From assembly GCA_019873655.1 (NCBI GenBank), contig JAIOAU010000013.1, forward strand, positions 1 to 64,000: a DNA stretch of 64,000 bases, given 5' to 3'. This stretch comes from Chloroflexota bacterium. Its GTDB lineage: Bacteria; Chloroflexota; Anaerolineae; Anaerolineales; Villigracilaceae. Under the pieces are notes generated by a model that was not told the origin of the DNA, made no database searches, and worked only from the letters and a program-made list of their open reading frames with translations. Shown piece after piece: positions 45,566 through 59,233 of this stretch. Each line of letters starts with the position of its first letter. Within the stretch, counting starts at the first letter, position 1. The position numbers were made by a program, and so were the translations under genes.

Positions 45566-45584
45566 TCAGTGTTCGGTGTTCAAT
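45552..45584. repeat. Stutter repeat at the nitroreductase stop
   Basis: TCAGTGTTCAGTGATCAGTGTTCGG-type tandem units, the reverse complement of the units at 43754 and 60164. It provides the TGA stop of the nitroreductase gene and runs into the larger repeat array. Confidence 0.75.
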
Positions 45585-45585
45585 C

Positions 45586-46070
45586 AAGGTTCGCGAGCGG
45601 TTGAACCGCGAGCCGTTCAGCCTTCAGTTCAGCAGTACAACTGCTGAAGGAACACACCTTCCAAGTTCGCGAGCACTTCAAGGTTCGCGAGCAGTTAAAC
45701 TGCGAGCCGTTCAGCAGTACAACTGAGTTGAACGTTCGCGAGCAGTTGAACTGAACGTTCGCGAGCAGTTGCACTGCGAGCCGTTCAGCCCTCAAAGTTC
45801 GCTTCAAGGTTCGCGAGCAGTTAAACTGCGAGCCGTTCAGCAGTACAACTTCAGCAGTACAACTGCTGAAGGAACGCGGTGGAGGGGATTGGTCGGTAGT
45901 CGAATACTCGTCAGTCGCAGGGCAGGCGGAGAGTCTGCCCTGCGTGCTATAGTATTGGATCAAGGTTCGCGAGCAGTTGCACTGCGAGCCGTTCAGCAAT
46001 ACAACTTCAGCAGTACAACTGCTGAAGGAACAAAGTACAACTGCTGAAGGAACAAAGTACAACTGCTGAA
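45586..46070. repeat. Array of hairpin repeats at the left edge of the island
   Basis: No gene is visible in this stretch. It holds about seven copies of GTTCGCGAGCAGTTNAACTG-type units, each with the small palindrome GCAGTTNAACTGC, interspersed with CAGCAGTACAACTGCTG hairpins followed by AAGGAAC. One copy of the 82-bp repeat lies inside. Long frames through it are artefacts of the repeats. Single related units recur at the right edge of the island. Confidence 0.85.
45871..45952. repeat. 82-bp island-flanking repeat, copy A (left outer)
   Basis: Begins GGAACGCGGTGGAGGGGATT and ends TGCGTGCTATAG. Contains the hairpin GCAGGGCAG...CTGCCCTGC. Nearly identical to copies at 46071, 58888 and 59044, all in the same orientation. 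Confidence 0.85.
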
Positions 46071-46152
46071 GGAACGCGGTGGAGGGGATTAGTCGGCAGT
46101 CGTTAGTCGTCAGTCGCAGGGCAGGCGGTGAGTCTGCCCTGCGTGCTATAAT
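46071..46152. repeat. 82-bp island-flanking repeat, copy B (left inner), with -10 box
   Basis: Same unit as copy A. It ends TGCGTGCTATAAT, an extended -10 promoter element (TGN-TATAAT with one base shift), about 90 bp before the methylase start, so it could drive that gene. Confidence 0.85.
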
Positions 46153-46240
46153 ATCAGCAACATCTTGTATAAACGGGGAAATCCCCTCCGGTCGGCAAAT
46201 TGGTTCAAAAGATGTTCTCTGCCCCCAACTCCAGCCTCCC

Positions 46241-49200
46241 ATGACCACCACCCTCCAAACCTACGAACAAATCCGTCAGCTGACCCCTGCCTTTGCCCGC
46301 TTTACACAAGAGGCGGCGGCGCAGGCGCACAACGAAGCCGAGTTCGAACGCCAGATGAACAACGAAATCGAGCGCCTGGCGGCAAAGCTCGGCGTGCAAT
46401 TGCTTTTTCGAGAGCAATACACCCTCGCCACCGGACGCGCCGACGCGGTCTATAACCGTTTCGTTATCGAGTACGAACCGCCCGGTTCACTGCGCTCCGT
46501 TCTCCCGCACGGACACACTACTCACGCCATCCAGCAAGTCAAAAATTACATCGAAGGTCTGGCGCGGGAAGAACGTCACGACCGCGACCGACTGTTGGGA
46601 GTCGCCTTCGACGGCAACTTCATCATTTTCGTCCGTTACCACCAGGGGCATTGGATTGTCGAAGAGCCGCTGGAAGTCAACGAGGCTTCCTGTGAGCGTT
46701 TCCTGCGCTCGCTGTTTTCCCTTTCGTCGGGGCGGGCGCTCATCCCCGAAAACCTGGTCGAAGATTTCGGCAATCAGAATGTCCTCAGCCATCAGGTCAC
46801 CGGCGCGCTCTATCGGGCGCTGGAACGCCACGAAAACGACCTGACGGCCCGCCTGTTCGAGCAGTGGAAACTCTTCTTCGGCGAGACGGCCGGCTACGAG
46901 GCTGCTGCTGGGGTCTTGCAACACAAGACCGAACTGCGCGCCTTTCTGCGCGGCATGGGATTGAAGCCTGAAGCGACCGACATGCCGCGCTTTTTCTTCG
47001 CCCTGCAAACCTACTTTGCTTTTCTGGTCGAAAACATCGCCCGCCTGGTGTTGCAGGCCTATGCCGGGGGCGCATTGGGCGCGACGCCGCTCACGACCGT
47101 CGCCTCCCTGCAAGGCGGAGCGTTGCACGCCGAACTGAAGAAATGGGAAAGCGGCGACCTCTACCGCCTGCTGGGGCTGAAAAACCTGCTCGAAGGCGAC
47201 TTCTTCGCCTGGTATCTGGACGCCTGGGACAACGAGGTGGAAGCCGCCCTGCGCCAGGTGCTGCAACGCCTGGCCGATTACAACCCCGTCACCGTGCAGG
47301 ACGACCCGCACTCCGCCCGCGACCTGCTCAAGAAACTCTATCACTACCTGCTGCCGCGCGAGATTCGCCACGACCTGGGCGAGTTCTACACCCCCGACTG
47401 GCTGGCCGAACGCCTGCTCACCCAGTTAAACGAGCCGCTCTTCGTCATGCCCAAAGCAGGGCAGATGCCGAGACTCGCCCCAAAACGCCTGCTCGACCCG
47501 GCCTGCGGTTCCGGCACGTTCCTGGTGCTGGCCGCCCGCGCCCTCAAGGCCAACTGCCGCCAGGCCGGGCTGGCCGAAGCCGATACCCTAGACATCCTGC
47601 TCAACAGCCTGGCCGGGATTGACCTGAACCCGCTGGCGGTGATGGCGGCGCGGGTCAACTTCCTGCTGGCCATCGCCGACCTGCTGCCCTACCGCCGCCG
47701 CGAGGTGGAAATCCCGATTTATCTGGCCGACAGCATCCTGACCCCCGCCCAGGGCGATGTGCTGGCGCACAACCGCCGCATCCTGGAGACCGCTGTCGGG
47801 CCGCTGCCTGTACCGCTGGCGATTGACAGCCGCGCCGAGATGGAAAAACTGACTGACCTGCTCGAAGAATACGTGCGCGGCGGCTTCGAGGCCGAAGTCT
47901 TCCTGCAGCGCTGCTGCGCCGACCTGCCCGACCTGAACGCCGACCCGGCCAACACGGCCATCCTGCGCGACCTCTTCGAGACCCTGCGCGACTTGCACCG
48001 GCGCGGGCTGGACGGCATCTGGGCGCGGGTGGTCAAGAACGCCTTCATGCCGCTCTTCCTGGAGCCGTTCGATTACATCGCCGGCAACCCGCCCTGGATT
48101 AACTGGGAAAGTCTGCCGCAAGGGTATCGCGACCGCTCCGCCCCGCTCTGGCAGGAACTGGGGTTGTTCGTTCATTCCGGCATGGACACCATCCTGGGCA
48201 AAGGCAAAAAAGACATTTCAACGCTGATGACCTATGCCGTTGCACGACGCTTTCTAAAACGCGGCGGCAAACTGGGCTTTGTCATCACCCAGAGCGTGTG
48301 GAAGACGAGCGGCGCCGGACAGGGCTTCCGCCGCTTCCGGCTGGGCAAAGAAGGAGAACACCTTCGCATCCTGCACGTGGACGACCTGAGCCGCCTGCAG
48401 GTCTTCGAGGGCGCCAGCACGCGCACCAGCGTCTTCGTCCTCAAGAAGGGCGAGCCGACCCGCTACCCCGTCCCCTATACCTATTGGCAGAAGACCACCC
48501 CCGGCCAGGGGCTGGATTACGACAGCACGCTCGACGAGGTGCTGGCGCAGACCCGCCGCCTGCGCTTCGATGCCGCGCCGGTGGACCCGGATGATCTCAC
48601 CAGCGCCTGGCTGACCGCCCGCCCGCGCGCCCTCAAAGCCGTACAGAAGGCATTGGGCAAATCCGAATACCAGGCGCACGCCGGCGTGACCACCTGGGCT
48701 AATAGCATTTATTGGCTGGAAAAGATTGCCGAGCGCCCGGACGGCTTGTGGATTGTGCGCAACCTGACCGAGGGCGCCAAACGCAAGGTGGACTCGGTCA
48801 CCGCCGAAATCGAACCCGACCTGCTCTACCCCCTGGTGCGCGGCCGCGACGTGCAGCGCTGGCAGGCGCAGCCTTCTGCCTACCTCCTGATGACGCAGGA
48901 CGCCCAACTGCGGCGCGGATTAGACCCAACCCTCCTGCAAACCCGCCACCCCAAAACCTGGGCCTATCTCAAGCGCTTCGAGGCCGTCCTGCGCGAGCGT
49001 TCCGGCTTCAAGCGCTATTTCACCCGCAAGCAGGGCAAACAGGTGGTGGAGACCGGCCCCTTCTACTCCATTTTCAACGTCGGCGAGTACACTTTCAAGC
49101 CGTGGAAGGTGGTGTGGCGAGAGCAATCTGCCTGGTTTACGGTTGCTGTTGTGGGCATGCAAGAGAATAAATGCATTGTTCCTGACCACAAACTTATGTT

Positions 49201-49591
49201 GATTGATTGTCAAGAAGAAAACGAAGCATTTTATCTGGCGGCGGCCTTGAACAGTTTGCCGGTGACGATTGCCGTTTGGTCATACGCTATTTCCATTCAA
49301 CAAACGACCCACATTACCGAAAAAATTGCCATTCCAAAATTTGACCCTGCCAACTCTGTTCACACTCGCCTAGCCGACCTCTCGCGCCAGGCGCACACCC
49401 TGGCGCCGGCGGCCTATGCAGGTGATGATGCTGCCTGGCAACAATTGCAGGCCATCGAAACACAAATTGACACCCTGGCGGCGCAGTTGTGGGGTCTCGC
49501 CCCGGCGGAACTGGCCGAACTGCGCGCTGCGCTGGAAGAATTGAAGGGCGACGATATCGGCGCAGAGGCAGGCGAGGAGGACGAGGAATAG
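46241..49591 (+). CDS. Eco57I-like restriction-methyltransferase protein
   Basis: A 1116-residue, single-chain type IIG/ISP-like protein. The N-terminal part may be a nuclease domain: GRADAVYNRFVIEYE has an Asp and a Glu spaced as in PD-(D/E)xK enzymes but with Glu instead of the usual Lys. The methylase core has LGEFYTPDWLAERLL, motif I DPACGSGTF (about 419-427) and motif IV NPPW (about 616-619), so it modifies adenine N6. The rest is a target-recognition region, ending in a coiled coil IETQIDTLAAQLWGL. The start MTTTLQTYEQ was chosen over a longer frame that runs into the repeat. Confidence 0.88.
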   Translation: MTTTLQTYEQIRQLTPAFARFTQEAAAQAHNEAEFERQMNNEIERLAAKLGVQLLFREQYTLATGRADAVYNRFVIEYEPPGSLRSVLPHGHTTHAIQQVKNYIEGLAREERHDRDRLLGVAFDGNFIIFVRYHQGHWIVEEPLEVNEASCERFLRSLFSLSSGRALIPENLVEDFGNQNVLSHQVTGALYRALERHENDLTARLFEQWKLFFGETAGYEAAAGVLQHKTELRAFLRGMGLKPEATDMPRFFFALQTYFAFLVENIARLVLQAYAGGALGATPLTTVASLQGGALHAELKKWESGDLYRLLGLKNLLEGDFFAWYLDAWDNEVEAALRQVLQRLADYNPVTVQDDPHSARDLLKKLYHYLLPREIRHDLGEFYTPDWLAERLLTQLNEPLFVMPKAGQMPRLAPKRLLDPACGSGTFLVLAARALKANCRQAGLAEADTLDILLNSLAGIDLNPLAVMAARVNFLLAIADLLPYRRREVEIPIYLADSILTPAQGDVLAHNRRILETAVGPLPVPLAIDSRAEMEKLTDLLEEYVRGGFEAEVFLQRCCADLPDLNADPANTAILRDLFETLRDLHRRGLDGIWARVVKNAFMPLFLEPFDYIAGNPPWINWESLPQGYRDRSAPLWQELGLFVHSGMDTILGKGKKDISTLMTYAVARRFLKRGGKLGFVITQSVWKTSGAGQGFRRFRLGKEGEHLRILHVDDLSRLQVFEGASTRTSVFVLKKGEPTRYPVPYTYWQKTTPGQGLDYDSTLDEVLAQTRRLRFDAAPVDPDDLTSAWLTARPRALKAVQKALGKSEYQAHAGVTTWANSIYWLEKIAERPDGLWIVRNLTEGAKRKVDSVTAEIEPDLLYPLVRGRDVQRWQAQPSAYLLMTQDAQLRRGLDPTLLQTRHPKTWAYLKRFEAVLRERSGFKRYFTRKQGKQVVETGPFYSIFNVGEYTFKPWKVVWREQSAWFTVAVVGMQENKCIVPDHKLMLIDCQEENEAFYLAAALNSLPVTIAVWSYAISIQQTTHITEKIAIPKFDPANSVHTRLADLSRQAHTLAPAAYAGDDAAWQQLQAIETQIDTLAAQLWGLAPAELAELRAALEELKGDDIGAEAGEEDEE

Positions 49592-50052
49592 GCGGCCTCG
49601 GCGGCATCGGTTGGAAACCGACGCCGCCCGGGCGGGAAGCCCGCCCTGCGGGCTTGACACGGCGAGGCGGGGGATTCCATCCCCCGCCGGGGATGCGGCG
49701 GCCTCGGCGGCATCGGTTGGAAACCGACGCCGCCCGGGCGGGAAGCCCGCCCTGCGGGCTTGACACGGCGAGGCGGGGGATTCCATCCCCCGCCGGGGAT
49801 GCGGCGGCCTCGGCGGCATCGGTTGGAAACCGACGCCGCCCGGGCGGGAAGCCCGCCCTGCGGGCTTGACACGGCGAGGCGGGGGATTCCATCCCCCGCC
49901 GGGGATGCGGCGGCCTTTTGCGGCATCGGTTGGAAACCGACGCCGCGCGGGCAGGAAGCCCGCCCTGCGGGCTTGATACGGCGAGGCGGGGGATTCCATC
50001 CCCTGCCGAAAGAGAGTTTGACACCGCCAGGCGGGAGACTCCATCCACGCCG
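49591..50052. repeat. REP cassette array: three identical 106-bp units plus diverged copies
   Basis: Units begin at 49591, 49697 and 49803 and look identical; a fourth diverged unit starts at 49909 and a partial one follows to about 50052. Each holds three hairpins: CGGTT-GGA-AACCG, AAGCCCG-CCCTG-CGGGCTT and GGCGGGGGAT-TCC-ATCCCCCGCC. No gene is present. It abuts the methylase stop on one side and the transposase on the other. Confidence 0.92.
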
Positions 50053-50080
50053 GACAAAATTAGCGACAAAGGCAGAGAGC

Positions 50081-50500
50081 ATGAAAAGAGCGGGTGCATT
50101 CTATCAACTGGTTTATCACTTCACCTGGAGCACCAAAAACCGCCAGCCGATGATTACGCCAGAAGTGGAAGCGCGCCTGTATGCCTATATCGGCTACAAA
50201 TGCAAGGAATTGGGCTATCGCCTGCATGCCATCGGCGGCACAGGAGACCATTTGCATGTTCTATTGAGTTTGACGCCGACTCAATTGGTGGCAGAGGCGG
50301 CCAAAAATCTCAAGGGTGCGTCATCGCACTACATCAACAAAGAAAGCGGATTGAACGCCACACTTTACTGGCAAGATGGGTATGGCGTTGTCACGCTGCG
50401 CCAATCTGAAATCCAAAAGGTTGTAAAATATATTCTGAACCAAAAAGAGCATCACCGACAAGGAAGACTCGCCGTTTTGCTGGAGAGAGCGCAGGAATGA
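50081..50500 (+). CDS. IS200/REP-associated (RAYT) tyrosine transposase
   Basis: A 139-residue HUH transposase. The HUH pair is in GDHLHVLLSL, and the catalytic tyrosine lies in VVKYILNQKEHH. It starts YQLVYHFTWSTKNRQPMI, the usual family opening. Size fits a TnpA of the IS200 type; with the adjoining REP cassettes it forms a REPtron-like unit. The coding DNA is more AT-rich than the REP array and the upstream gene. No TnpB is present. Confidence 0.92.
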   Translation: MKRAGAFYQLVYHFTWSTKNRQPMITPEVEARLYAYIGYKCKELGYRLHAIGGTGDHLHVLLSLTPTQLVAEAAKNLKGASSHYINKESGLNATLYWQDGYGVVTLRQSEIQKVVKYILNQKEHHRQGRLAVLLERAQE

Positions 50501-50539
50501 TTCAACAGCACTCCGATACACAAATCCAGGGTGAAAACC

Positions 50540-51676
50540 ATGCCTAATCCCTTTGCACCCTTGCAGCCTGCCCTGCAAATCCTGGCCACCGAAGCACGCG
50601 TCCTGCCGGCCACCGGGCAAGCCATTGTTGACATGGTCTCGCCCGATTTGGAAGAAGCCTACGACCGCGCTGCAGGCGGGCGGGATGAAAAAGTCACTTC
50701 GGTCTGGGAGACACGCCGGAAACTCTACCATGACGTTACGCCCATTCCCCGGCGTCAAGAACATCGCTTGCGCTATTTCCTGGACGGTTCGGCCAAAGTC
50801 TATTTCATTGGCACTCTGCTCGAACGCGAACGTTCCAGCCCGGTGCAGTTGGGTCAAATTGGCGCGGCAGCGGTATACCGGGAGGACGACGGACGCGTGC
50901 GCCGCGCCGCGGTGGAACACAAAATCCTGCTCCTGATGGACCAAAAGGCGCTCTCAGAGCAACTCTGGCAAGCCGTGGAGCAAACTGTGGCCGGTACGCC
51001 CAACATTCTGCTTCGTTCCACAAACGATAGCAAAGACCGTTTTAGCGAAGCGCTGGGGGTCATCGAACCACGCTCACGCGGCGCTCACCGCGCCAACTGG
51101 GCTATGCGTGAATTGGAGGTTGCTCTGGCGCGTGAAGGGCTAAAACGAGACCAAGACGACTGGCTGGTGCTGGATGGTGCGCTTGGCACCGAATACATGG
51201 ACTGGAACGGCTTGCCGCTGATAGGAGTAGCCAAATCCTTCCGGCGCGATACGCTGTTCGACTTGGGCAGCGGTCCGCGCGCCACACAGATGAACCTGTA
51301 TTCCATGCTGGCCGGTTTGCAAGTTAACCAACGCACAGCCGTTTTCCCGCGCTGGCCGGCGCAGGAACGCGAGGGCGCAATTGTTTTCTGGTACGTCCGC
51401 ATCCGCCCCCAACGCGGACTGGATTATCCGCTAATGGGCGTAGTCAAAGTGGAATTACCAAACCCTGGCCGACAGCCGGTGGATAGCGACCTGGTAGACC
51501 GCATTAGCGGCTGGATAATGGCCGAGCGTTGTGTTACGCCGCACGGACGCGATAACCGCTGGCACGCGCACCTTTATGCCATCAGCCTGGCCGAACGCGT
51601 CATCAAAGACCGATTCTATACCGAAGAAGTGCTCAAAGCTGCCATCCGCTGGCCGCAAATTGGTGTGCAATTGTGA
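50540..51676 (+). CDS. NurA-like nuclease
   Basis: A 378-residue NurA-domain protein. The catalytic aspartates are in YFLDGSAK (about D82) and LVLDGALG (about D212), with the lysine of IGVAKSF (about K232) and a late WHAHLYAISLAERV. NurA is a 5'-3' nuclease that works inside the HerA ring in archaeal DNA-end processing. Here it is 19 bp upstream of a HerA-like gene in a methylase operon, which favours a defence role. The ATG start was chosen over an in-frame GTG three codons earlier. Confidence 0.85.
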   Translation: MPNPFAPLQPALQILATEARVLPATGQAIVDMVSPDLEEAYDRAAGGRDEKVTSVWETRRKLYHDVTPIPRRQEHRLRYFLDGSAKVYFIGTLLERERSSPVQLGQIGAAAVYREDDGRVRRAAVEHKILLLMDQKALSEQLWQAVEQTVAGTPNILLRSTNDSKDRFSEALGVIEPRSRGAHRANWAMRELEVALAREGLKRDQDDWLVLDGALGTEYMDWNGLPLIGVAKSFRRDTLFDLGSGPRATQMNLYSMLAGLQVNQRTAVFPRWPAQEREGAIVFWYVRIRPQRGLDYPLMGVVKVELPNPGRQPVDSDLVDRISGWIMAERCVTPHGRDNRWHAHLYAISLAERVIKDRFYTEEVLKAAIRWPQIGVQL

Positions 51677-51695
51677 GACCTAAGGAGAAGAAAAC

Positions 51696-53405
51696 ATGAG
51701 CGACGAACATCCCGAAAACATCACTCCACAAAACGATATCATTGGACGCGCTTCGGCCACCGAACGCGAACCGAATACCGCCGACCGCTTCTCGTTTTGG
51801 ATTCACCCGGCTGGCCGTCTGAATCCTTTCGACATTGTAGCCGCCGAACATTTGGAGCAAAGCCACACATACGGCCTGGTCACCAATATCCGTCACGTCA
51901 CGGACGCCGCAGGGCATCTCTCCAACTTTATTTCAAACGACTTCGGCGAATTGGTGGACGAACCTAACACGCCGCGCCAGGGCGCCAATGTAGCCGATGT
52001 CTCAGTGCTATCGAATGATAAAGAAATCTACATGCCCGTGCAAAGCGAGGCGCGCGTCCGCTTTGCAGACGAGGCTGGGATTCACGACGCGCTAGGTATC
52101 GACACCATGGCCGAGAAAGAGAAACGTGAGGGGCGCAAGATCCGCATCCCCGCCGGCCTGATTCAAATGAGCAACGGGACAGACGCTGTCGCCTACCTGG
52201 ATGTAGATTATGTTCTGGGCCCGGAGGCGGGGCATGTCAACATCAGCGGAATCTCCGGCCTGGCCACCAAAACATCTTACATTACGTTTCTGATTCAATC
52301 CATTCTGCAAACTCTCTCCTCCGAAAAAATTGCTGTCATCCTGCTCAATGTGAAATACGATGACCTGCTCCACATCCATGAAGCGCGTCGATTGGAAGAT
52401 GATGAAACAGCGCTCTGGTCGCGGCTTGGGCTTAGGCCCGAACCATGGCCTGCTGACCGCGTACATTACCTTTTGCCCTGGGGCAAGCAAACCCAGACGA
52501 CAGGTAAACCGAATATCTTTGGAGACAGTATTCCACCAGGCGCGTCCTTCTACGCCTATGACCTAAAAACCACTGCGCCCAAACTGGATTTGCTTCTGTC
52601 GCACGTCCCCGATCCATGGGACACATTGGGGGCCCTGATTGGCGAGGTTAGCCAGGGGTTACAGGCAAATGAATCAAAATGGCGCGAAATTCGCACTTGG
52701 CAGGATTTGCTTTCCAAACCGCCATTATCAGAAAACGGCATTCCGCAAAAGTTTGGAAATATTGCTGCTTCCTCGGTAGGGCGTTTCTTGCGTTTGCTAC
52801 GCAGAGCGGTGCAAACTCGCCAAAGCGGTGTATTTGTGTCACAACTCAGCACCCGCATGACTACCCTTGAGAAAGAAATTGGCGCTATCAAAGGTGGACA
52901 TACTTACGTGGTAGATATTGCCCGCCTGACCGATGTCGAACAGACGCTGGTTTTTGGCGATGTGCTACGCACCGTTTATGCTATGTACTCCGGAGAATTG
53001 GCTCTCGAAAGCGATGATGAATTGCCAGAAAAAGTCATCGTGTTTGTGGACGAACTGAATAAATATGCTCCCAGCCGAGGCGAAGCCGCCGAATCTCCGA
53101 TTGTAGAGCAGGTGCTCGATATTGCTGAACGCGGACGCTCCTTCGGAATTATCTTGTTTTCCGCTCAGCAATTCCTGAGCGCTGTGCACCCGCGCGTTAC
53201 CGGCAATGCCGCCACCAAGGTATTGGGTCGCACAGACAGCGCTGAGGTCAACGAAGGGAACTACCGCTTCCTCGACAAAGATATCAAAATGCACCTGACA
53301 AGGCTGGACAAGGGTGAATTGATTCTCTCACACCCAATTTACCGCCAGCCGGTTAAGATTCGCTTCCCGCGCCCGCCATTCCTGCAAGGCCGTGTCAAGA
53401 AGTGA
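51696..53405 (+). CDS. HerA-like ATPase
   Basis: A 569-residue HerA/FtsK-superfamily ATPase. The N-terminal HAS-barrel part spans about 30-170. The P-loop is unusual: SGISGLATKTS (about 184-194) lacks the glycine normally before the lysine and has one extra residue, though the Lys-Thr pair is kept. Walker B is VIVFVDELNKYAP (about 447-459), followed by the sensor-like FSAQQFLSAV and an arginine-bearing GRTDSAEV. It should form a hexamer with the NurA product and translocate DNA. Strong ribosome binding site AAGGAGA. Overlaps the next methylase gene by GTGA. Confidence 0.85.
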   Translation: MSDEHPENITPQNDIIGRASATEREPNTADRFSFWIHPAGRLNPFDIVAAEHLEQSHTYGLVTNIRHVTDAAGHLSNFISNDFGELVDEPNTPRQGANVADVSVLSNDKEIYMPVQSEARVRFADEAGIHDALGIDTMAEKEKREGRKIRIPAGLIQMSNGTDAVAYLDVDYVLGPEAGHVNISGISGLATKTSYITFLIQSILQTLSSEKIAVILLNVKYDDLLHIHEARRLEDDETALWSRLGLRPEPWPADRVHYLLPWGKQTQTTGKPNIFGDSIPPGASFYAYDLKTTAPKLDLLLSHVPDPWDTLGALIGEVSQGLQANESKWREIRTWQDLLSKPPLSENGIPQKFGNIAASSVGRFLRLLRRAVQTRQSGVFVSQLSTRMTTLEKEIGAIKGGHTYVVDIARLTDVEQTLVFGDVLRTVYAMYSGELALESDDELPEKVIVFVDELNKYAPSRGEAAESPIVEQVLDIAERGRSFGIILFSAQQFLSAVHPRVTGNAATKVLGRTDSAEVNEGNYRFLDKDIKMHLTRLDKGELILSHPIYRQPVKIRFPRPPFLQGRVKK

Positions 53406-54619
53406 ACCGGGTTGATCTGCCCTCTCTGCCCGAAGGCTTTGAATACCGGCTTGATTTGCGGCATCATGTAACACCGCACTTGCTGAAAAGCCAGCCGATA
53501 CATCGGTGGTTTGCATTTCCTCATAGCTATTCGCCGCAGTTGATTGACGAAGTTCTAAAAACCTGTCCCATCTCGCCTACCGGAAAAATATTCGATCCAT
53601 TTGTCGGGGCTGGAACGACCGTGTTGCGCGCCCGGCAATTGGGATATTCCGCTGTAGGAACTGATCTTTCTCCGCTCAGTCTGTTCGTAAGTAGGGTAAA
53701 ACTGGGGGACTATAACAAAGAGACTCTTGAAGAAGCCCTAAATTCTATCCTCGCTTACCATCCCCTTCGAGAATATCCAGAAGTACCTCCAAGAATCCAA
53801 AAAGCCTTTACCGACCTGGAAATTCGACACATCTTCGGAATAAAAGAACGCATTCAACATTTGCCCCAGCCAATGGCTGATTTTTTTCAACTGGCTTTGC
53901 TGCGCGTCCAACAAACTGTAAGCCGCGCTACGCCGGATGGCGGCTGGTTCCGCTGGATAGAAAAAGAAGACCAAAGCCACCTGGTAAAAGACTTATTCGA
54001 ACGCCAGGCGCGATTACAAATCGGAGATGTCGCCCCCCTTACAACTTGCCAAAGCGAGATTTTGGCTAGTGACGCCCGCTCCCTAGACAATATTACCGGC
54101 AACTTTGAAATGGTGATCACTTCGCCGCCTTACCCGAATCGGCATGATTATTCACGCATCTTTCACATCGAATTACTCTCTCTCGGTTTGGCAGAAAAAG
54201 ATGTGACATTTTTCCGCCACCACTCAATTCGGTCCCACGTGGAGGCGGTGAAGCCATCTGCTGCGCCAAACGATTACCAAATGCCCCAAAAATTGGCCGC
54301 GACCCTGGAACAGATACCTCCTAACGCCGACCCACGCGTAATCCCTATGCTCCAGGGATACTTTGAAGATATGCACATGACACTCAAGGCGATCTCCTCC
54401 AGGATTTCACACAACGGATGGTGCGCTTTTGTGGTAGGCAACGTCCGTCACGCGGGTGTAATGATCCCCGTAGATGAGATTCTTGCTGAAATAGGCGAAA
54501 GTATTGGCTACAGACTTCAAGCAGTTTGGGTTGCCCGTCTGCGAGGAAACAGCGCCCAACAAATGGGTCGCTTTGGACGCGAGCCGGCCAGAGAAAGCAT
54601 AGTGATCTTTAAGAATTAA
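53402..54619 (+). CDS. DNA methyltransferase (SPPY type)
   Basis: A 405-residue amino-methyltransferase. Motif I FDPFVGAGTT (about 64-73) precedes motif IV SPPY (about 241-244), and a target-recognition part lies between. SPPY-type enzymes make N4-methylcytosine or N6-methyladenine. Starts at GTG overlapping the HerA stop by four bases. No restriction endonuclease partner is visible other than NurA-HerA, so the methylase may mark self DNA for that complex. Confidence 0.9.
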   Translation: MNRVDLPSLPEGFEYRLDLRHHVTPHLLKSQPIHRWFAFPHSYSPQLIDEVLKTCPISPTGKIFDPFVGAGTTVLRARQLGYSAVGTDLSPLSLFVSRVKLGDYNKETLEEALNSILAYHPLREYPEVPPRIQKAFTDLEIRHIFGIKERIQHLPQPMADFFQLALLRVQQTVSRATPDGGWFRWIEKEDQSHLVKDLFERQARLQIGDVAPLTTCQSEILASDARSLDNITGNFEMVITSPPYPNRHDYSRIFHIELLSLGLAEKDVTFFRHHSIRSHVEAVKPSAAPNDYQMPQKLAATLEQIPPNADPRVIPMLQGYFEDMHMTLKAISSRISHNGWCAFVVGNVRHAGVMIPVDEILAEIGESIGYRLQAVWVARLRGNSAQQMGRFGREPARESIVIFKN

Positions 54620-54629
54620 GGAGTCAAGT

Positions 54630-54890
54630 ATGCCACCGACTGCTAACGACTTTCAAAAAGAACTGGATTCCATATTTGCCTTTGCCGAAGCAAAACGCTT
54701 GACCGCAATTGTCATAAAGTCCGGTGATTTGCATCAACTTGTGGGAGATTATCCCGGAACAGACCATCGGATGCCGATCTGTTGTAATGTCATGAGAAAG
54801 AACATGAGAAGTGGCGACCAGGTTTTGTCCGAACCACCAAGCGGAGAAGGTGCAACCTTGACCATAAAATATGAATTCCCCAGAAAATAA
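54630..54890 (+). CDS. Small conserved protein of the methylase operon
   Basis: An 86-residue protein, 10 bp after the methylase stop. It contains the conserved-looking stretch GDLHQLVGDYPGTDHRMPICCNVM followed by GDQVLSEPPSGEGATLTIKYEFPRK. I recall similar short proteins or domains beside restriction-modification and HNH genes, but cannot assign a function. The paired cysteines and conserved histidines could bind metal. Confidence 0.65.
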   Translation: MPPTANDFQKELDSIFAFAEAKRLTAIVIKSGDLHQLVGDYPGTDHRMPICCNVMRKNMRSGDQVLSEPPSGEGATLTIKYEFPRK

Positions 54891-54965
54891 TCCCGACCCG
54901 CTCGCGCCTTCGCTCTGTCATTCCCCTGGCGAAACATCGCGCCAATCCCCTCCCCGCGCAGCGAC

Positions 54966-54995
54966 CTGCGCAGACAGGCTCAAAGCCTGTCCTAC
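54966..54995. repeat. GACAGGCT...AGCCTGTC dispersed hairpin, copy 1
   Basis: CTGCGCAGACAGGCT and AAGCCTGTCCTAC form a hairpin with a short loop. A near-identical copy is at 59170-59199 on the other side of the island. Confidence 0.7.
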
Positions 54996-55127
54996 CAGGC
55001 AGCGCGAGATGAAACGTCCGCGCTGACGGAGCAAATCGAGCAGGTGGAAAGAGAAATTGACGAGCGTGTGAGCGAGTTGTATGGATTGCGCGAGAACCCA
55101 TCGCGAATTCACCAAAAAAGCGTATGA
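54996..55127 (+). pseudogene. Remnant of the C-terminus of a type II-like DNA methylase
   Basis: The frame reads ALTEQIEQVEREIDERVSELYGL, then ends RENPSRIHQKSV. Coiled EIDxxVxxLYGL tails are typical of Eco57I/PglX-type methylases. Only about 44 codons remain, without a start, and the left edge meets the dispersed hairpin. It suggests a second restriction-methylase gene was lost from this spot. Confidence 0.55.
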
Positions 55128-55161
55128 TTTCCGCCAACATGAGTGATGAAAGGAGGCAGGA

Positions 55162-55743
55162 ATGAACGGCGTAATCACTTATGTCAGAATCACCAACAAC
55201 TGTACAGAGACAATCAAGGTATACCTTCGCTATGTGATGCACACGAAGCCGTCGCTACGGAGAAGAAGAAAGAGGTTCATTGCCCTGAAACCGCGTGAAA
55301 CTTCATATCCTGTAGCAAAAACCAACCTGGTTGGAGGCAAAAACTGGGAAGAAATCTCCAGCAGGCCATGCGTCTTGATCGAAACTGTAGAGCATGAACA
55401 TAGATTCTTTGTAGTAAAAAACACAGGCCGAAGCCCGATTGCGATCCCCATCAAGATTTCCGTGCCGCAAGAATTGGCGGAAAAATATCCTAAACAGGAG
55501 CGAACCATTGTGATTCGGCCGGGCGCTTTTTCGCGCTCCATTGATAAAAAAGCCCTGAAATTCCCCGGACAATTACAGGAACTTGTTAAAGCCCGTCTTG
55601 CATTGGTGAAAGCCGTTGATATAGGACCAAGTAAAAAAACGGGGGCCGTTGGTTCTTTAGATGGAGAGGACGTATATATCTGCTACCAGTGCGGCGGACC
55701 AATCATATTCAGATATAATCCTCCCAGGCCAGTGCATGTTTGA
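55162..55743 (+). CDS. Hypothetical protein, 193 residues
   Basis: Not recognised. A beta-rich, Lys/Arg-rich N-terminal half (TYVRITNNCTETIKVYLRY) is followed by VKNTGRSPIAIPIKI and IRPGAFSRSI. The C-terminal GEDVYICYQCGGPIIFRYN has a single CxxC that might bind metal. AAAGGAGG is a strong ribosome binding site seven or eight bases from the ATG. It lies 16 bp upstream of the FRG gene, so the two probably form an operon. Confidence 0.6.
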   Translation: MNGVITYVRITNNCTETIKVYLRYVMHTKPSLRRRRKRFIALKPRETSYPVAKTNLVGGKNWEEISSRPCVLIETVEHEHRFFVVKNTGRSPIAIPIKISVPQELAEKYPKQERTIVIRPGAFSRSIDKKALKFPGQLQELVKARLALVKAVDIGPSKKTGAVGSLDGEDVYICYQCGGPIIFRYNPPRPVHV

Positions 55744-55759
55744 GTAAGGAAAAGAAGAG

Positions 55760-56512
55760 ATGAAGACCATTGAAAAAAGGCTGGTTCACTCCCTGGCAGA
55801 ATTTTTGAATGTAACAGCCGAGATCATTGAAGAGTGGTCCAGTCCAGAGATGGGCGAGGCGCAGCCCTGGTACCGCGGACAGATGAAAGCCGCATGGAGT
55901 CTCGTGCCGGGTGAATTCCGTTACGAAAACATCGACGCGGATGAATTGCGTACCCAATTTGAACTCAAGGCAAGGCCGCTTCTGACGAGCATTCCACAAA
56001 ACGAATGGGAATGGTATTTTCTAATGCAGCATTATGGGTTACCCACCCGTCTATTAGATTGGACAACGGGTTCGTTAATTGCATTGCACTTCGCATTGTG
56101 TCACGAAACCGGCTGTCACGATGCTGCCGTATGGGTACTGGATCCATGGAACTTGAATACTTGGAGCGTGGGTAGTCCGGATCTGCTGCTGACAACAGAC
56201 GAAAAACTAGGAGAGTATCTTTCTCCCCCTTATAGCAAGAAACGATATCCCTCAAAACCTGTTGCTGTTGTTCCCCCTTATAATAGTGCAAGAATTACGG
56301 TCCAGAGAGGAGCCTTTACCGTTCACGGCAATGATCCAAGAGGGATTGATCAACAGTTCAAAAAGAGGTTGATCCAAATTGTGATACCAAAAGACGACGC
56401 GATTCTGATGCGTCGCCAATTGAGAAATGCAGGTATAAGTGAGTTTACTCTCTTTCCTGAACTGGATGGCCTTTGCCGCGACATCCGCGCTCTGTATATC
56501 GAGGGCTGTTAA
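55760..56512 (+). CDS. FRG-domain protein
   Basis: A 250-residue protein whose FRG domain shows WYRGQ near residue 38, GEFRYEN and the hallmark QHYGLPTRLLDWT. FRG domains occur in prophages, toxins and defence loci, and structural relation to ADP-ribosyl or other transferases has been suggested but not settled. Coding DNA is AT-rich relative to the core genome. Pairs with the preceding 193-residue gene. Confidence 0.85.
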   Translation: MKTIEKRLVHSLAEFLNVTAEIIEEWSSPEMGEAQPWYRGQMKAAWSLVPGEFRYENIDADELRTQFELKARPLLTSIPQNEWEWYFLMQHYGLPTRLLDWTTGSLIALHFALCHETGCHDAAVWVLDPWNLNTWSVGSPDLLLTTDEKLGEYLSPPYSKKRYPSKPVAVVPPYNSARITVQRGAFTVHGNDPRGIDQQFKKRLIQIVIPKDDAILMRRQLRNAGISEFTLFPELDGLCRDIRALYIEGC

Positions 56513-56610
56513 AGCAAAATGATCATTGATGATTTTCAGACATCTGCTCCACCAATTGCGGCCCGCTCGAACAGCCCTGACGCGTGGCGACCTGCGCGGA
56601 TCGCGTCGCC

Positions 56611-56760
56611 GGCTTAACGGCTTCATGAAGCATGCTTAACTCGATTACATCGCTGGCTTAACGGCTTCGTAAAGCATGCTTAACTCGATTGCATCGCTGG
56701 CTTAATGGCTTCGTAAAGCATGCTTAACTCTTTGCGTCGCTGGCCTTAAAGCCGCATCCA
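56611..56760. repeat. 44-bp tandem repeat, about 3.3 copies
   Basis: Units start at 56611, 56655 and 56699 with a partial unit at 56742. Each contains GGCTTAANGGCTTC, the palindrome AGCATGCT, and TTAACTC. The first unit has the perfect palindrome GCTTCATGAAGC. The unit is not a multiple of three and no gene covers it. Confidence 0.8.
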
Positions 56761-56808
56761 ATGGATCGGGGCGGACAGGCGGCTTACGGATGCCGGGGGC
56801 GGCGCTTA

Positions 56809-57201
56809 CTACGCCTCTACCGGGTCATCCGGATGGTCGGCATTCCACAGGGCAAAAATCTCCTCCTGCGTCTTGCCGATGTTCTGGGCGTTGATCCATT
56901 TGCCGCGGAAACCGGCGTTGACGTTGCGGATCACCATCGGGTTGATGCGCGTCCGCACCTGAATGGATCCGTCCTTCTTGCCAATCGGCTCGAAATGCGT
57001 GCCGTTGGGCATCTGGACGATGCGGCCGGATTTCAGGCCGTTTTCCAACTGCACGTCCAGTTCGGCCAGCACGGCCAGCACCGAGCCGCGGCTTTGGTTG
57101 GTGGCGTTGACGATGTTCTCGATGATTTCCTCTTTGGTCATCGGTTTGCCCCGCTGGAGGCGCGGTCCATAAGCGGTCCACGCCTGTATCTTTTTGGCCA
57201 T
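56809..57201 (-). CDS. Probable HU-like DNA-binding protein
   Basis: A 130-residue protein with an IHF/HU-like N-terminal helical part (TKEEIIENIVNATNQSRGSVLAVLAELDVQL) and a beta arm region (GRIVQMPNGTHFEPI...SIQVRTRINPMVIRNV), then a C-terminal extension. Similar proteins with a PNGTHF-type arm are annotated as HU-like in Bacteroidota and other groups. It has a good AAGGAGG ribosome binding site and is the only minus-strand gene of the island. A TTCAAT-N8-ATTGAA dyad lies just upstream. Confidence 0.6.
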   Translation of the reverse strand: MAKKIQAWTAYGPRLQRGKPMTKEEIIENIVNATNQSRGSVLAVLAELDVQLENGLKSGRIVQMPNGTHFEPIGKKDGSIQVRTRINPMVIRNVNAGFRGKWINAQNIGKTQEEIFALWNADHPDDPVEA

Positions 57202-57216
57202 CGATTTTCCTCCTTA

Positions 57217-57236
57217 TTCAATTGAAAACGATTGAA
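57217..57236. promoter_or_regulatory. Dyad upstream of the HU-like gene
   Basis: TTCAAT and ATTGAA flank an eight-base centre, 16 bp before the HU-like start on the minus strand. A self-regulatory operator is possible. A minus-strand TATACT lies further upstream at about 57289-57284. Confidence 0.3.
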
Positions 57237-57389
57237 CAGGCTTGGCAAGGATGCAGTCGCGCTGTCCGCCCCGATCGGCGGCAAGTATACCGCAAGGTTC
57301 GCACTTCGGGAAGTCATCTAGTCAATGCCGCCTCAATAGAAAAATTCAAAAGCCGGAACGCAGAGAGATGAGCGGAATATAAGTGATTG

Positions 57390-57418
57390 TTGTTTCCTGA
57401 ACTTAAATCCGCTATAAT
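57390..57418 (+). promoter_or_regulatory. Promoter of the small basic protein and membrane gene
   Basis: TTGTTT and TATAAT are separated by exactly 17 bp, about 40 bp before the ATG at 57457. Confidence 0.65.
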
Positions 57419-57456
57419 CTCTATAAGTCAAGCCAGTTGAAAAAAACGAGGCTAAC

Positions 57457-57669
57457 ATGAAATTTCAAGGCATGTCAAATTCCACACTGCCTGGTCAGCC
57501 CCAAAGACCGCCCTCTAAACATCCGGGGGCCCGTAACCTGGAACGAGAAGCAGAAAAAAAGCGTACTGCCATTCCAGAACGGTCGCCTGGTAAATCGAAA
57601 AAAAAGCCATCACCCCGCTCTTCTCCGCTCCCTTTATCGAACAACGATTGTTCAGAGAAGAAAAAGTAG
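57457..57669 (+). CDS. Small basic proline-rich protein, 70 residues
   Basis: Not recognised. The sequence is rich in Lys, Arg, Pro and Ser (EAEKKRTAIPERSPGKSKKK), apparently disordered. It has a proper promoter and GAGG before the ATG, and the membrane gene starts 21 bp later. It may be a true small gene or a leader-like frame. Confidence 0.45.
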   Translation: MKFQGMSNSTLPGQPQRPPSKHPGARNLEREAEKKRTAIPERSPGKSKKKPSPRSSPLPLSNNDCSEKKK

Positions 57670-57690
57670 CCTGTCAAAAGTTTCATCTCG

Positions 57691-58731
57691 ATGAACACCT
57701 TGACAAATTATCTCGAAAAACTGGGGAGCAACTTTCTGGTTGCTTCGATGGTGCCTTCTCTGGCGCTTGTCCTTGCTTGCCTTCTTGTATTTGATCCTAT
57801 TTTGCAAACGGGGGAAATATTCAGAAATCCCGAAAGTACCGCTGGTCTCATTGGCCTGGGAATGATTATTTTTGTCCTGACCGTCATCATAGGTTACACT
57901 CTTACTGCGCTGAATACATATATTCTGAAAATGCTTGAAGGCTATGTCATCCCCTGGCCTTTGCGTCCTTTTTACTCTCTGCGCCAGAAGTCTCACTTGA
58001 ATAGAGCAAGACGCTTAAGAGAACAGCGCGAAGAACTGCAAGGGAAAATACTGGAGTTAGAAAAACAGGTCGAAGCAGAAGCAACGCCTGATTTGGACGA
58101 ACACTTGGAACAACTGCACGCTGACTATTACCGGATAGCCGTTACCTACGATCTCTCCTATCCAGAAGACTTGAACACCATACTGCCCACCCGATTCGGT
58201 AATCAGCTCAAAGCCGCAGAAAACTATCCGGGCGAACGTTTTGGGATGGATGGCGTATTGTTCTGGCCGCGCTTGATGCATGTCATTCCCCAGGATTACA
58301 AGTCAGAAATTGAGGCCGCTCGGAACGAACTATCCTTTCTGGCTAATATGTCAATTTTGGCATTTCTTTTCTCCTTGTTGTGCATGTTGGCTATTTTTGG
58401 AACAATGGCTACTGTTGATGTACAGATGGGGGGACTAAATGGGTTCCTTGATTTTTTGTTTCAGGTTTCCCGCTACCTTATTTCCATGATTATTTCGATT
58501 GCTGTCTCGGCTTTCTTCTATAACGCTTCACTCTATTCAGTAGGCTCTTTTGGATTGATCATCCGAGCCTCTTACGACCTCTTTCGGCTTGATTTATTCA
58601 AAAAAATGGGATTGAAGCCCCCAAAAAATTCAATACAAGAATTCAAAACCTGGCGTCAGCTCAACGAACTTGTTGCCCTTGGCAGACAATCACTGTCATT
58701 CAAGTGTTTGAATTATCGAGAAGACCTGTAA
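57691..58731 (+). CDS. Four-helix membrane protein of unknown function
   Basis: A 346-residue protein with two N-terminal membrane helices (VASMVPSLALVLACLLVF; LGMIIFVLTVIIGYTL), a cytoplasmic coiled-coil/globular part (NRARRLREQREELQGKILELEKQVE; LPTRFGNQLKAAENYPGERFGMDGVLFWPRL), and two C-terminal helices. The PTRFGN...GMDxVLFWPRL motif recurs in uncharacterised membrane proteins of actinobacteria as far as I recall. AT-rich composition and position suggest accessory DNA; a membrane effector is possible but unproved. Confidence 0.65.
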   Translation: MNTLTNYLEKLGSNFLVASMVPSLALVLACLLVFDPILQTGEIFRNPESTAGLIGLGMIIFVLTVIIGYTLTALNTYILKMLEGYVIPWPLRPFYSLRQKSHLNRARRLREQREELQGKILELEKQVEAEATPDLDEHLEQLHADYYRIAVTYDLSYPEDLNTILPTRFGNQLKAAENYPGERFGMDGVLFWPRLMHVIPQDYKSEIEAARNELSFLANMSILAFLFSLLCMLAIFGTMATVDVQMGGLNGFLDFLFQVSRYLISMIISIAVSAFFYNASLYSVGSFGLIIRASYDLFRLDLFKKMGLKPPKNSIQEFKTWRQLNELVALGRQSLSFKCLNYREDL

Positions 58732-58887
58732 CGCGCAAGGCCGGGAGGAAAAGCAGTCTCAGAGTTTCATCTCCACAGAGCCTTTACATTGCTTTTAGTT
58801 TTCCAAGTGCATCATAAGTCATAGACCGAGCCCCCGGATGGCACGAGAGGCAAATACAAAGAAACAACAGCAGTACAACTGCTGAAA

Positions 58888-58970
58888 GAACATGGTTGGA
58901 GGGGATTGGTCGGTAGTCGAATAGTCGTCAGTCGCAGGGCAGGCGGCGAGTCTGCCCTGCGTGCTATAGT
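58888..58970. repeat. 82-bp island-flanking repeat, copy C (right outer of the pair)
   Basis: Same unit as copies A and B, direct orientation. It is followed, as copy A is, by GATCANGGTTCGCGAGCAGTT and a CAGCAGTACAAC hairpin, so the A-B and C-D blocks share more than the unit itself. Before it, 58732-58887 holds no gene. Confidence 0.85.
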
Positions 58971-59043
58971 TTGGATCAGGGTTCGCGAGCAGTTAAACTG
59001 CGAGCCGTTCAGCAGTACAACTTCAGCAGTACAACTGCTGAAA

Positions 59044-59126
59044 GAACATGGTTGGAGGAGATTAGTCGGCAGTCGAATAGTCGTCAGTCGCAGGGCAGGC
59101 GGCGAGTCTGCCCTGCGTGCTATAAT
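59044..59126. repeat. 82-bp island-flanking repeat, copy D, with -10 box
   Basis: Ends TGCGTGCTATAAT like copy B, about 107 bp before the cofD start, so it may act as a promoter for cofD-cofC. Confidence 0.85.
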
Positions 59127-59169
59127 CAGTCTGCCCGACCACCAACCACCCGACTACTCGACTCCCGAT

Positions 59170-59199
59170 CTGCGCCGACAGGCTGAAAGCCTGTCCTAC
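59170..59199. repeat. GACAGGCT...AGCCTGTC dispersed hairpin, copy 2
   Basis: CTGCGCCGACAGGCT and AAAGCCTGTCCTAC; differs from the copy at 54966 at few positions. It lies in the cofD leader. Confidence 0.7.
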
Positions 59200-59233
59200 A
59201 CACCCGCGCCCTTCGTGTTGAAACCATAACCAG

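What the first reader, a model, noticed from the sequence alone, without database searches (positions are those of the whole stretch)
50540..54890. Compact NurA-HerA-methyltransferase-86-residue operon, a candidate antiviral system
Four genes are tightly packed (19 bp, -4 bp, +10 bp). NurA-HerA is a DNA-translocating nuclease pair known from archaeal end resection; joined to an SPPY methylase and a small conserved protein it would make a self/non-self system in which the methylase protects and the NurA-HerA complex degrades. I do not recognise this exact set as one of the named defence systems I know of.
Basis: partly seen in the sequence, partly recalled or inferred. Interest (0 to 1): 0.78.

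Follow-up and report, generated by a model that had tools for sequence, protein, structure and literature searches.

The report
Thermus-type DNA donation operon in Chloroflexota
The four genes are most of a known operon, a restriction enzyme plus a DNA-pumping ATPase, its nuclease partner and a methylase, which in Thermus bacteria exports DNA to other cells; here it sits on a foreign island in a Chloroflexota genome, where it may donate DNA, destroy invaders, or both.

Summary
NurA-like, HerA-like and SPPY-methylase genes and an 86-residue gene are packed at 50540-54890, with gaps of 19, -4 and 10 bp.

The unit was cut in the wrong place. Its first gene is a type IIG restriction-modification enzyme just upstream (46241-49591), separated from nurA by repeats and an IS200 transposase. 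Among 63 HerA relatives of at least 50% identity, 50 have the same IIG enzyme nearby and 27 the same methylase. The methylase carriers form one clade spanning about 11 phyla. None has the 86-residue gene.

The true unit, IIG-nurA-herA-methylase, is already published. It matches the tdtA operon of ICETh1 in Thermus thermophilus HB27 in order, gene sizes and the 4-bp herA/methylase overlap. There tdtA, nurA and the IIG gene are needed to donate DNA in transjugation.

The window lacks ICETh1's integrase and tRNA site. The operon lies on a 13.5-kb low-G+C island between nitroreductase and cofD. Relatives sit among defence genes and rarely beside integrases, so a defence role remains open.

Verdict: a new member of a known kind. 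The open question is whether, outside Thermus, it donates DNA, restricts invaders, or does both.

The parts
46241..49591 (+).
   Evidence: PADLOC REase_MTase_IIG PDLC03630, 1544 bits; D68...E77-x-E79, DPACGSG at 419, NPPW at 616, the motif set printed for the TspDTI subfamily (PMC3384240); next to HerA in relatives
49582..50023 (.). Four copies of a 123-nt repeat with a period of about 106 nt, between the IIG gene and nurA
   Evidence: not found elsewhere in the genome apart from one 39-bp match
50099..50500 (+). IS200-like (Y1) transposase between the IIG gene and nurA
   Evidence: Pfam Y1_Tnp 1e-25; single copy in the genome
50540..51676 (+). NurA-family nuclease (378 aa; TTC1878 is 377 aa)
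   Evidence: Pfam NurA 4e-4; profile match to drNurA 7f6d_H E=0.0012; 81% identical to the Levilinea homologue
51696..53405 (+). HerA/TdtA-type hexameric DNA-translocating ATPase (569 aa; TdtA is 568 aa)
   Evidence: profile match to drHerA 7f6d E=7e-58 with the same P-loop GISG-ATKTS and a DELNK Walker B; 60% identical to the T. scotoductus DSM 8553 copy
53402..54619 (+). N4/N6 DNA methylase with TSPPY (405 aa; TTC1880 is 410 aa), overlapping herA by 4 bp
   Evidence: the 27 carriers form one HerA clade, SH-aLRT 98
54630..54890 (+). 86-aa orphan, adjacent but not a conserved member of the operon
   Evidence: absent from all other operon loci; rare scattered homologues elsewhere
45586..46154 (.). 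Left repeat block flanking the island
   Evidence: 8 of 10 genomic matches to this repeat lie at the two island edges
58863..59128 (.). Right repeat block flanking the island
45566..59233 (.). Genomic island (13.5 kb, 54.8% G+C against 63.5-64.2% in the flanks) between nitroreductase and cofD; also holds an FRG-domain gene (55760-56512)
   Evidence: G+C; 148 bp between the same genes in the same-genus genome G392

Best explanation
This is a tdtA-type operon: type IIG restriction-methyltransferase, NurA nuclease, HerA/TdtA translocase ring and N4/N6 methylase, carried on a horizontally acquired island of a Chloroflexota genome. Inferred mechanism: the IIG enzyme nicks or cuts at sites that are incompletely methylated, the NurA-HerA ring loads on those ends, and the HerA ring drives the DNA through while NurA trims it. 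In the only system tested, T. thermophilus ICETh1, the result is export of dsDNA to other cells (transjugation). The same role is the most likely one here. Shown here: gene identities, intact active-site motifs, operon conservation, island. Shown elsewhere, in Thermus: requirement for donation. Inferred: that this copy does the same. I put identity with the tdtA operon type at about 0.9; the confidence below is for the whole statement including the donation role.
For: Order, sizes and overlap match TTC1877-1880: 1106/377/568/410 aa with -4 bp tdtA-methylase overlap, against 1116/378/569/405 aa with -4 bp. The IIG enzyme carries the D-(x8)-ExE, DPACGSG and NPPW motifs of the TspDTI subfamily. 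The T. scotoductus DSM 8553 cluster, named in PMC5365140 as tdtA-like, is in my set as L084, with IIG-NurA-HerA and 60% identical HerA. Deleting tdtA abolished donation, nurA cut it 4-5 orders and the IIG gene about 3 orders; the methylase had only minor effects. Own genome has ComEC and, as in Thermus, a separate DUF87 HerA. The nearest relative (L060, 88% HerA) and L101 have a tyrosine integrase beside the operon.
Against: No integrase or tRNA attachment site in the window. Only 3 of 63 close loci showed an integrase within the fetched flanks. Neighbours are defence-rich (against 78). Direct identity to HB27 TdtA could not be measured, because HB27 is not held. Repeats and an IS200 transposase separate the IIG gene from nurA, so co-transcription here is unproven. 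No donation has been tested outside Thermus.
Confidence: 0.48

Rival explanations
1. A nuclease-reinforced restriction (defence) system. The IIG enzyme cuts unmodified incoming DNA, NurA-HerA loads on the ends and degrades it processively, and the IIG methylase domain plus the extra SPPY methylase protect the host. Donation in Thermus would be a derived or side use.
For: The slot between IIG and nurA carries defence-type genes: HEC-01/AriA-like ATPase, BrxD-like ATPase, DUF3800. Neighbours of 53 operons match 45 and 85 PADLOC families, against 2 for random regions of operon-bearing genomes. The window island also has an FRG gene, PADLOC candidate PDC-S15. HerA with SIR2 or DUF4297 is anti-phage, and archaeal HerA-NurA has been proposed to be antiviral (PMC12977600).
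Against: The only experimental data show DNA donation, and the methylase mutant had minor effects. I found no phage assay of this operon in the held papers. PADLOC ATPase models are promiscuous, and defence-gene neighbours are also typical of mobile elements.
Confidence: 0.4
2. A DNA repair (end-resection) operon like NurA-HerA of Deinococcus radiodurans, with restriction genes as chance neighbours.
For: HerA is closest by sequence to D. radiodurans HerA among solved structures.
Against: Patchy, horizontally spread distribution, with the close HerA in 6 of 400 Chloroflexota besides the window; fixed partnership with IIG (overlap P=3e-8); a separate HerA in the same genome; the Thermus tdtA mutant is not notably stress-sensitive.
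Confidence: 0.05
3. A decayed island in which the operon no longer works, because repeats and an IS200 transposase have uncoupled the IIG gene from nurA.
For: About 950 bp of repeats and transposase lie between IIG and nurA.
Against: All four reading frames and active-site motifs are intact; relatives tolerate up to 3 kb of inserted genes at the same place.
Confidence: 0.07

Closest known systems
tdtA operon (TTC1877-1880) of ICETh1, Thermus thermophilus HB27: DNA secretion part of transjugation (PMC5365140, PMC7767461)
   Same: Same four gene families in the same order and near-identical sizes, with the same 4-bp overlap; TspDTI-type IIG enzyme; lower G+C than the host; island of similar size (about 14 kb)
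   Different: No integrase, no tRNA site and no 47-bp att repeats here; repeats and an IS200 transposase between IIG and nurA; different phylum; function untested
TspDTI / Tth111II / TthHB27I / TsoI subfamily of type IIG (IIC) restriction enzymes (PMC3384240)
   Same: D-ExE nuclease motif at the same spacing, DPACGSG, NPPW, about 1100 aa
   Different: Recognition sequence unknown; embedded with NurA-HerA, whereas the tspDTI flanks had no methylase
NurA-HerA of Deinococcus radiodurans (PDB 7f6d; PMC9960219)
   Same: HerA fold and unusual P-loop GISG-ATKTS; NurA-like partner
   Different: D. radiodurans pair is described as end-resection machinery; here the pair is tied to IIG and methylase genes
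HerA-SIR2 and HerA-DUF4297 anti-phage systems
   Same: HerA-family ATPase with a nuclease partner
   Different: Partner is NurA; PDB HerA 8xau matches at E=0.011 against 7e-58 for D. radiodurans HerA (that 8xau is an anti-phage type is my reading, not tested)

Membership tests
tdtA-type DNA secretion operon | Gene order IIG-nurA-herA/tdtA-N4/N6 methylase on one strand | tested here: met
   repeats and an IS200 transposase intervene between IIG and nurA
tdtA-type DNA secretion operon | Protein sizes near 1106/377/568/410 aa and 4-bp tdtA-methylase overlap | tested here: met
   1116/378/569/405 aa, -4 bp
tdtA-type DNA secretion operon | Direct sequence homology to HB27 TTC1877-1880 | tested here: inconclusive
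   HB27 is not held; bridged through T. scotoductus DSM 8553 (L084, 60% HerA identity), called tdtA-like in PMC5365140
tdtA-type DNA secretion operon | Required for DNA donation; membrane-associated translocase; co-transcription | not testable with these tools
   needs genetics and RNA
ICETh1-type integrative and conjugative element | Adjacent XerC-type integrase | tested here: not met
   no integrase among the ORFs or Pfam hits around the operon; present in relatives L060 and L101
ICETh1-type integrative and conjugative element | Insertion in a tRNA gene with 47-bp direct repeats | tested here: not met
   no tRNA in the window; flanking repeats are of another kind
ICETh1-type integrative and conjugative element | Lower G+C than the host genome | tested here: met
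   54.8% against 63.5-64.2%
TspDTI-subfamily type IIG enzyme | D-ExE nuclease motif, DPACGSG, NPPW | tested here: met
   D68, E77, E79; 419; 616 against PMC3384240
TspDTI-subfamily type IIG enzyme | Cleavage 11/9 nt from an asymmetric site, SAM-modulated | not testable with these tools
   needs purified enzyme
HerA-SIR2 / HerA-DUF4297 anti-phage systems | SIR2 or DUF4297 partner gene | tested here: not met
   partner is NurA-like

The most novel reading that the evidence does not exclude
Cell-to-cell DNA donation by the IIG-NurA-HerA operon is not a Thermus peculiarity. A horizontally spread form of it, mostly without an ICE integrase nearby and often joined to defence genes, occurs in Chloroflexota and many other bacterial phyla and doubles as a restriction system.
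Probability: 0.3. Interest if true: 0.78.

Novelty: new member of a known kind. Interest (0 to 1): 0.42.

Why it matters
The operon was characterised in one thermophile and described there as part of an ICE. Here the same unit is found in more than a dozen phyla, with the methylase-bearing form as one clade moving between them. That makes it testable whether gene donation of the transjugation type is widespread among uncultured bacteria, or whether the Thermus machine is a re-used restriction system.

Tried and rejected
The 86-aa protein gave no Pfam, NCBIfam or PHROGs hit and only a chance-level PADLOC hit (E=0.012), none in phages or viral contigs, and a low-confidence fold (pLDDT 51), so I did not search the model. 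A self-mobile ICE was rejected for lack of integrase and tRNA. HerA-SIR2-like defence was rejected on the partner gene. Coordinate or size errors cost. The integrase table could be tied to only a few loci because its contig numbers are unnamed. My integrase profile was seeded with three sequences, so its count is a lower bound; Pfam on neighbours did not show integrases among families with two or more members.

Full report
OBSERVATION. NurA is weak by Pfam (E=4e-4, just under the cut-off). It is supported by its place directly upstream of herA and by a profile match to solved D. radiodurans NurA (E=0.0012). HerA is not caught by Pfam DUF87 but matches D. radiodurans HerA 7f6d over its whole length (E=7e-58) with the same unusual P-loop GISG-ATKTS and a DELNK Walker B. 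That P-loop is therefore not a broken one: drHerA was solved with ADP bound (PMC9960219). The methylase has DPFVGAGT and TSPPY motifs.

THE UNIT IS LARGER. Immediately upstream lies a type IIG restriction-methyltransferase, 46241-49591 (PADLOC PDLC03630, 1544 bits). About 950 bp separate it from nurA: four copies of a 123-nt repeat and an IS200-like transposase. In the Chloroflexota sample (400 genomes), close HerA relatives occur in six genomes besides the window, and five of them also carry the IIG relative; the chance probability of that overlap is 3e-8. In 80 genome loci and one viral contig from across bacteria, 63 have HerA of at least 50% identity. Of these 50 have the IIG enzyme near, 53 a detected NurA, 27 the methylase, and 36 show IIG, nurA and herA in order on one strand; many contigs are truncated. 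No IIG relative was found beside a HerA below 50% identity. Gaps are tight, often -4 bp. In a quick maximum-likelihood HerA tree the methylase carriers, the window among them, form one clade of 27 rows (SH-aLRT 98, none of 500 label shuffles as low), with members from about 11 phyla, so the unit is co-inherited and moves horizontally. The 86-aa gene is absent from all of these loci and was found in only two other Chloroflexota genomes and three plasmids, in unrelated settings.

WHAT IT IS. The four-gene unit matches the tdtA operon of ICETh1 in T. thermophilus HB27: TTC1877, a type IIG enzyme identical to Tth111II, 1106 aa; TTC1878, NurA-like, 377 aa; TTC1879, TdtA, 568 aa; TTC1880, N4-N6 methylase, 410 aa, with gaps of 4, 2 and -4 bp and proven co-transcription (PMC5365140). 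The window has 1116/378/569/405 aa and the same 4-bp overlap. The window's IIG enzyme carries D68-(x8)-E77-x-E79, DPACGSG and NPPW, the motif set printed for TspDTI, Tth111II and TthHB27I (PMC3384240). PMC5365140 names the T. scotoductus DSM 8553 cluster as tdtA-like. That genome is in my set as L084 (IIG-NurA-HerA, HerA 60% identical to the window). HB27 itself was not available, so direct identity was not measured. As in Thermus, where all 27 genomes searched have a HerA match but only four have a close one, the window's genome has a separate DUF87 HerA.

HOW IT WORKS. Shown in Thermus: the tdtA mutant gives no donation, the nurA mutant loses 4-5 orders and the IIG mutant about 3 orders of transfer, and the methylase has minor effects. 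The authors propose that IIG cuts serve as transfer origins for a NurA-TdtA complex. Inferred here: the same cut, load and pump cycle. Whether the pumped DNA leaves the cell or is destroyed in place cannot be read from sequence.

CONTEXT. The operon sits on an island of about 13.5 kb, 54.8% G+C against 63.5-64.2% in the flanks, between nitroreductase and cofD. In the same-genus genome G392 those genes are 148 bp apart, and they are close neighbours in several other family members. Related repeats lie at both ends of the island and almost nowhere else in the genome. There is no integrase or tRNA, so ICETh1's mobility features are not met, though the nearest relative (Levilinea, L060) and L101 have a tyrosine integrase beside the operon. 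Across operon loci, neighbours match 45 and 85 PADLOC families in two batches of 102 proteins, against 2 families for 102 proteins from arbitrary regions of operon-bearing genomes. Some relatives carry defence-type genes inside the operon, between IIG and nurA: HEC-01/AriA-like ATPase with a weak DUF4276 match, BrxD-like ATPase, DUF3800. This keeps a defence role open. I give donation about 0.48 and defence about 0.40; the two are not exclusive.

NOVELTY. The operon type and its tested function are published, and the authors noted homologues in T. scotoductus and Chloracidobacterium. What is added here is a Chloroflexota member, the breadth of phyla, the single methylase clade, the defence-gene context and the variable slot between IIG and nurA. 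I found no paper in the held library joining this operon to Chloroflexota or to defence, but most subscription journals are missing from it.

Noticed in passing
L045:6397-12716, L038:454-6730, L120-L139: A second recurring operon, NurA-HerA followed by a GHKL (HATPase_c_3) ATPase and a radical SAM protein, in Clostridia and other phyla, as its own HerA clade; a radical SAM gene with B12-binding domain also follows IIG in L102, L110, L113 and L115. Function unknown to me.
   Followed up: partly
L036, L037, L039: Plasmids of Streptomyces and cyanobacteria carry a HerA-like gene next to SbcD and SbcC genes, like the archaeal rad50-mre11-nurA-herA cluster.
   Followed up: no
L035:4927-7635: Marinitoga camini virus 1 carries a NurA-HerA pair without IIG or methylase.
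   Followed up: no
L140: One IMG/VR viral contig (42.6 kb) carries the complete IIG-NurA-HerA-methylase operon.
   Followed up: no
window:45566-59233; L173, L174, L178: The gap between nitroreductase and cofD also holds other insertions of 5-6 kb in family relatives, so it may be an insertion hotspot.
   Followed up: partly
window:54630-54890: Homologues of the 86-aa protein are rare; one lies about 4 kb from a SIR2-domain gene (L168) and one about 4.4 kb from an avs1c gene on an Undibacterium plasmid (L165).
   Followed up: partly
window:55760-56512: FRG-domain gene, PADLOC candidate PDC-S15, on the same island.
   Followed up: no
window:56599-56730: Three tandem 44-nt repeats just after the FRG gene.
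   Followed up: no
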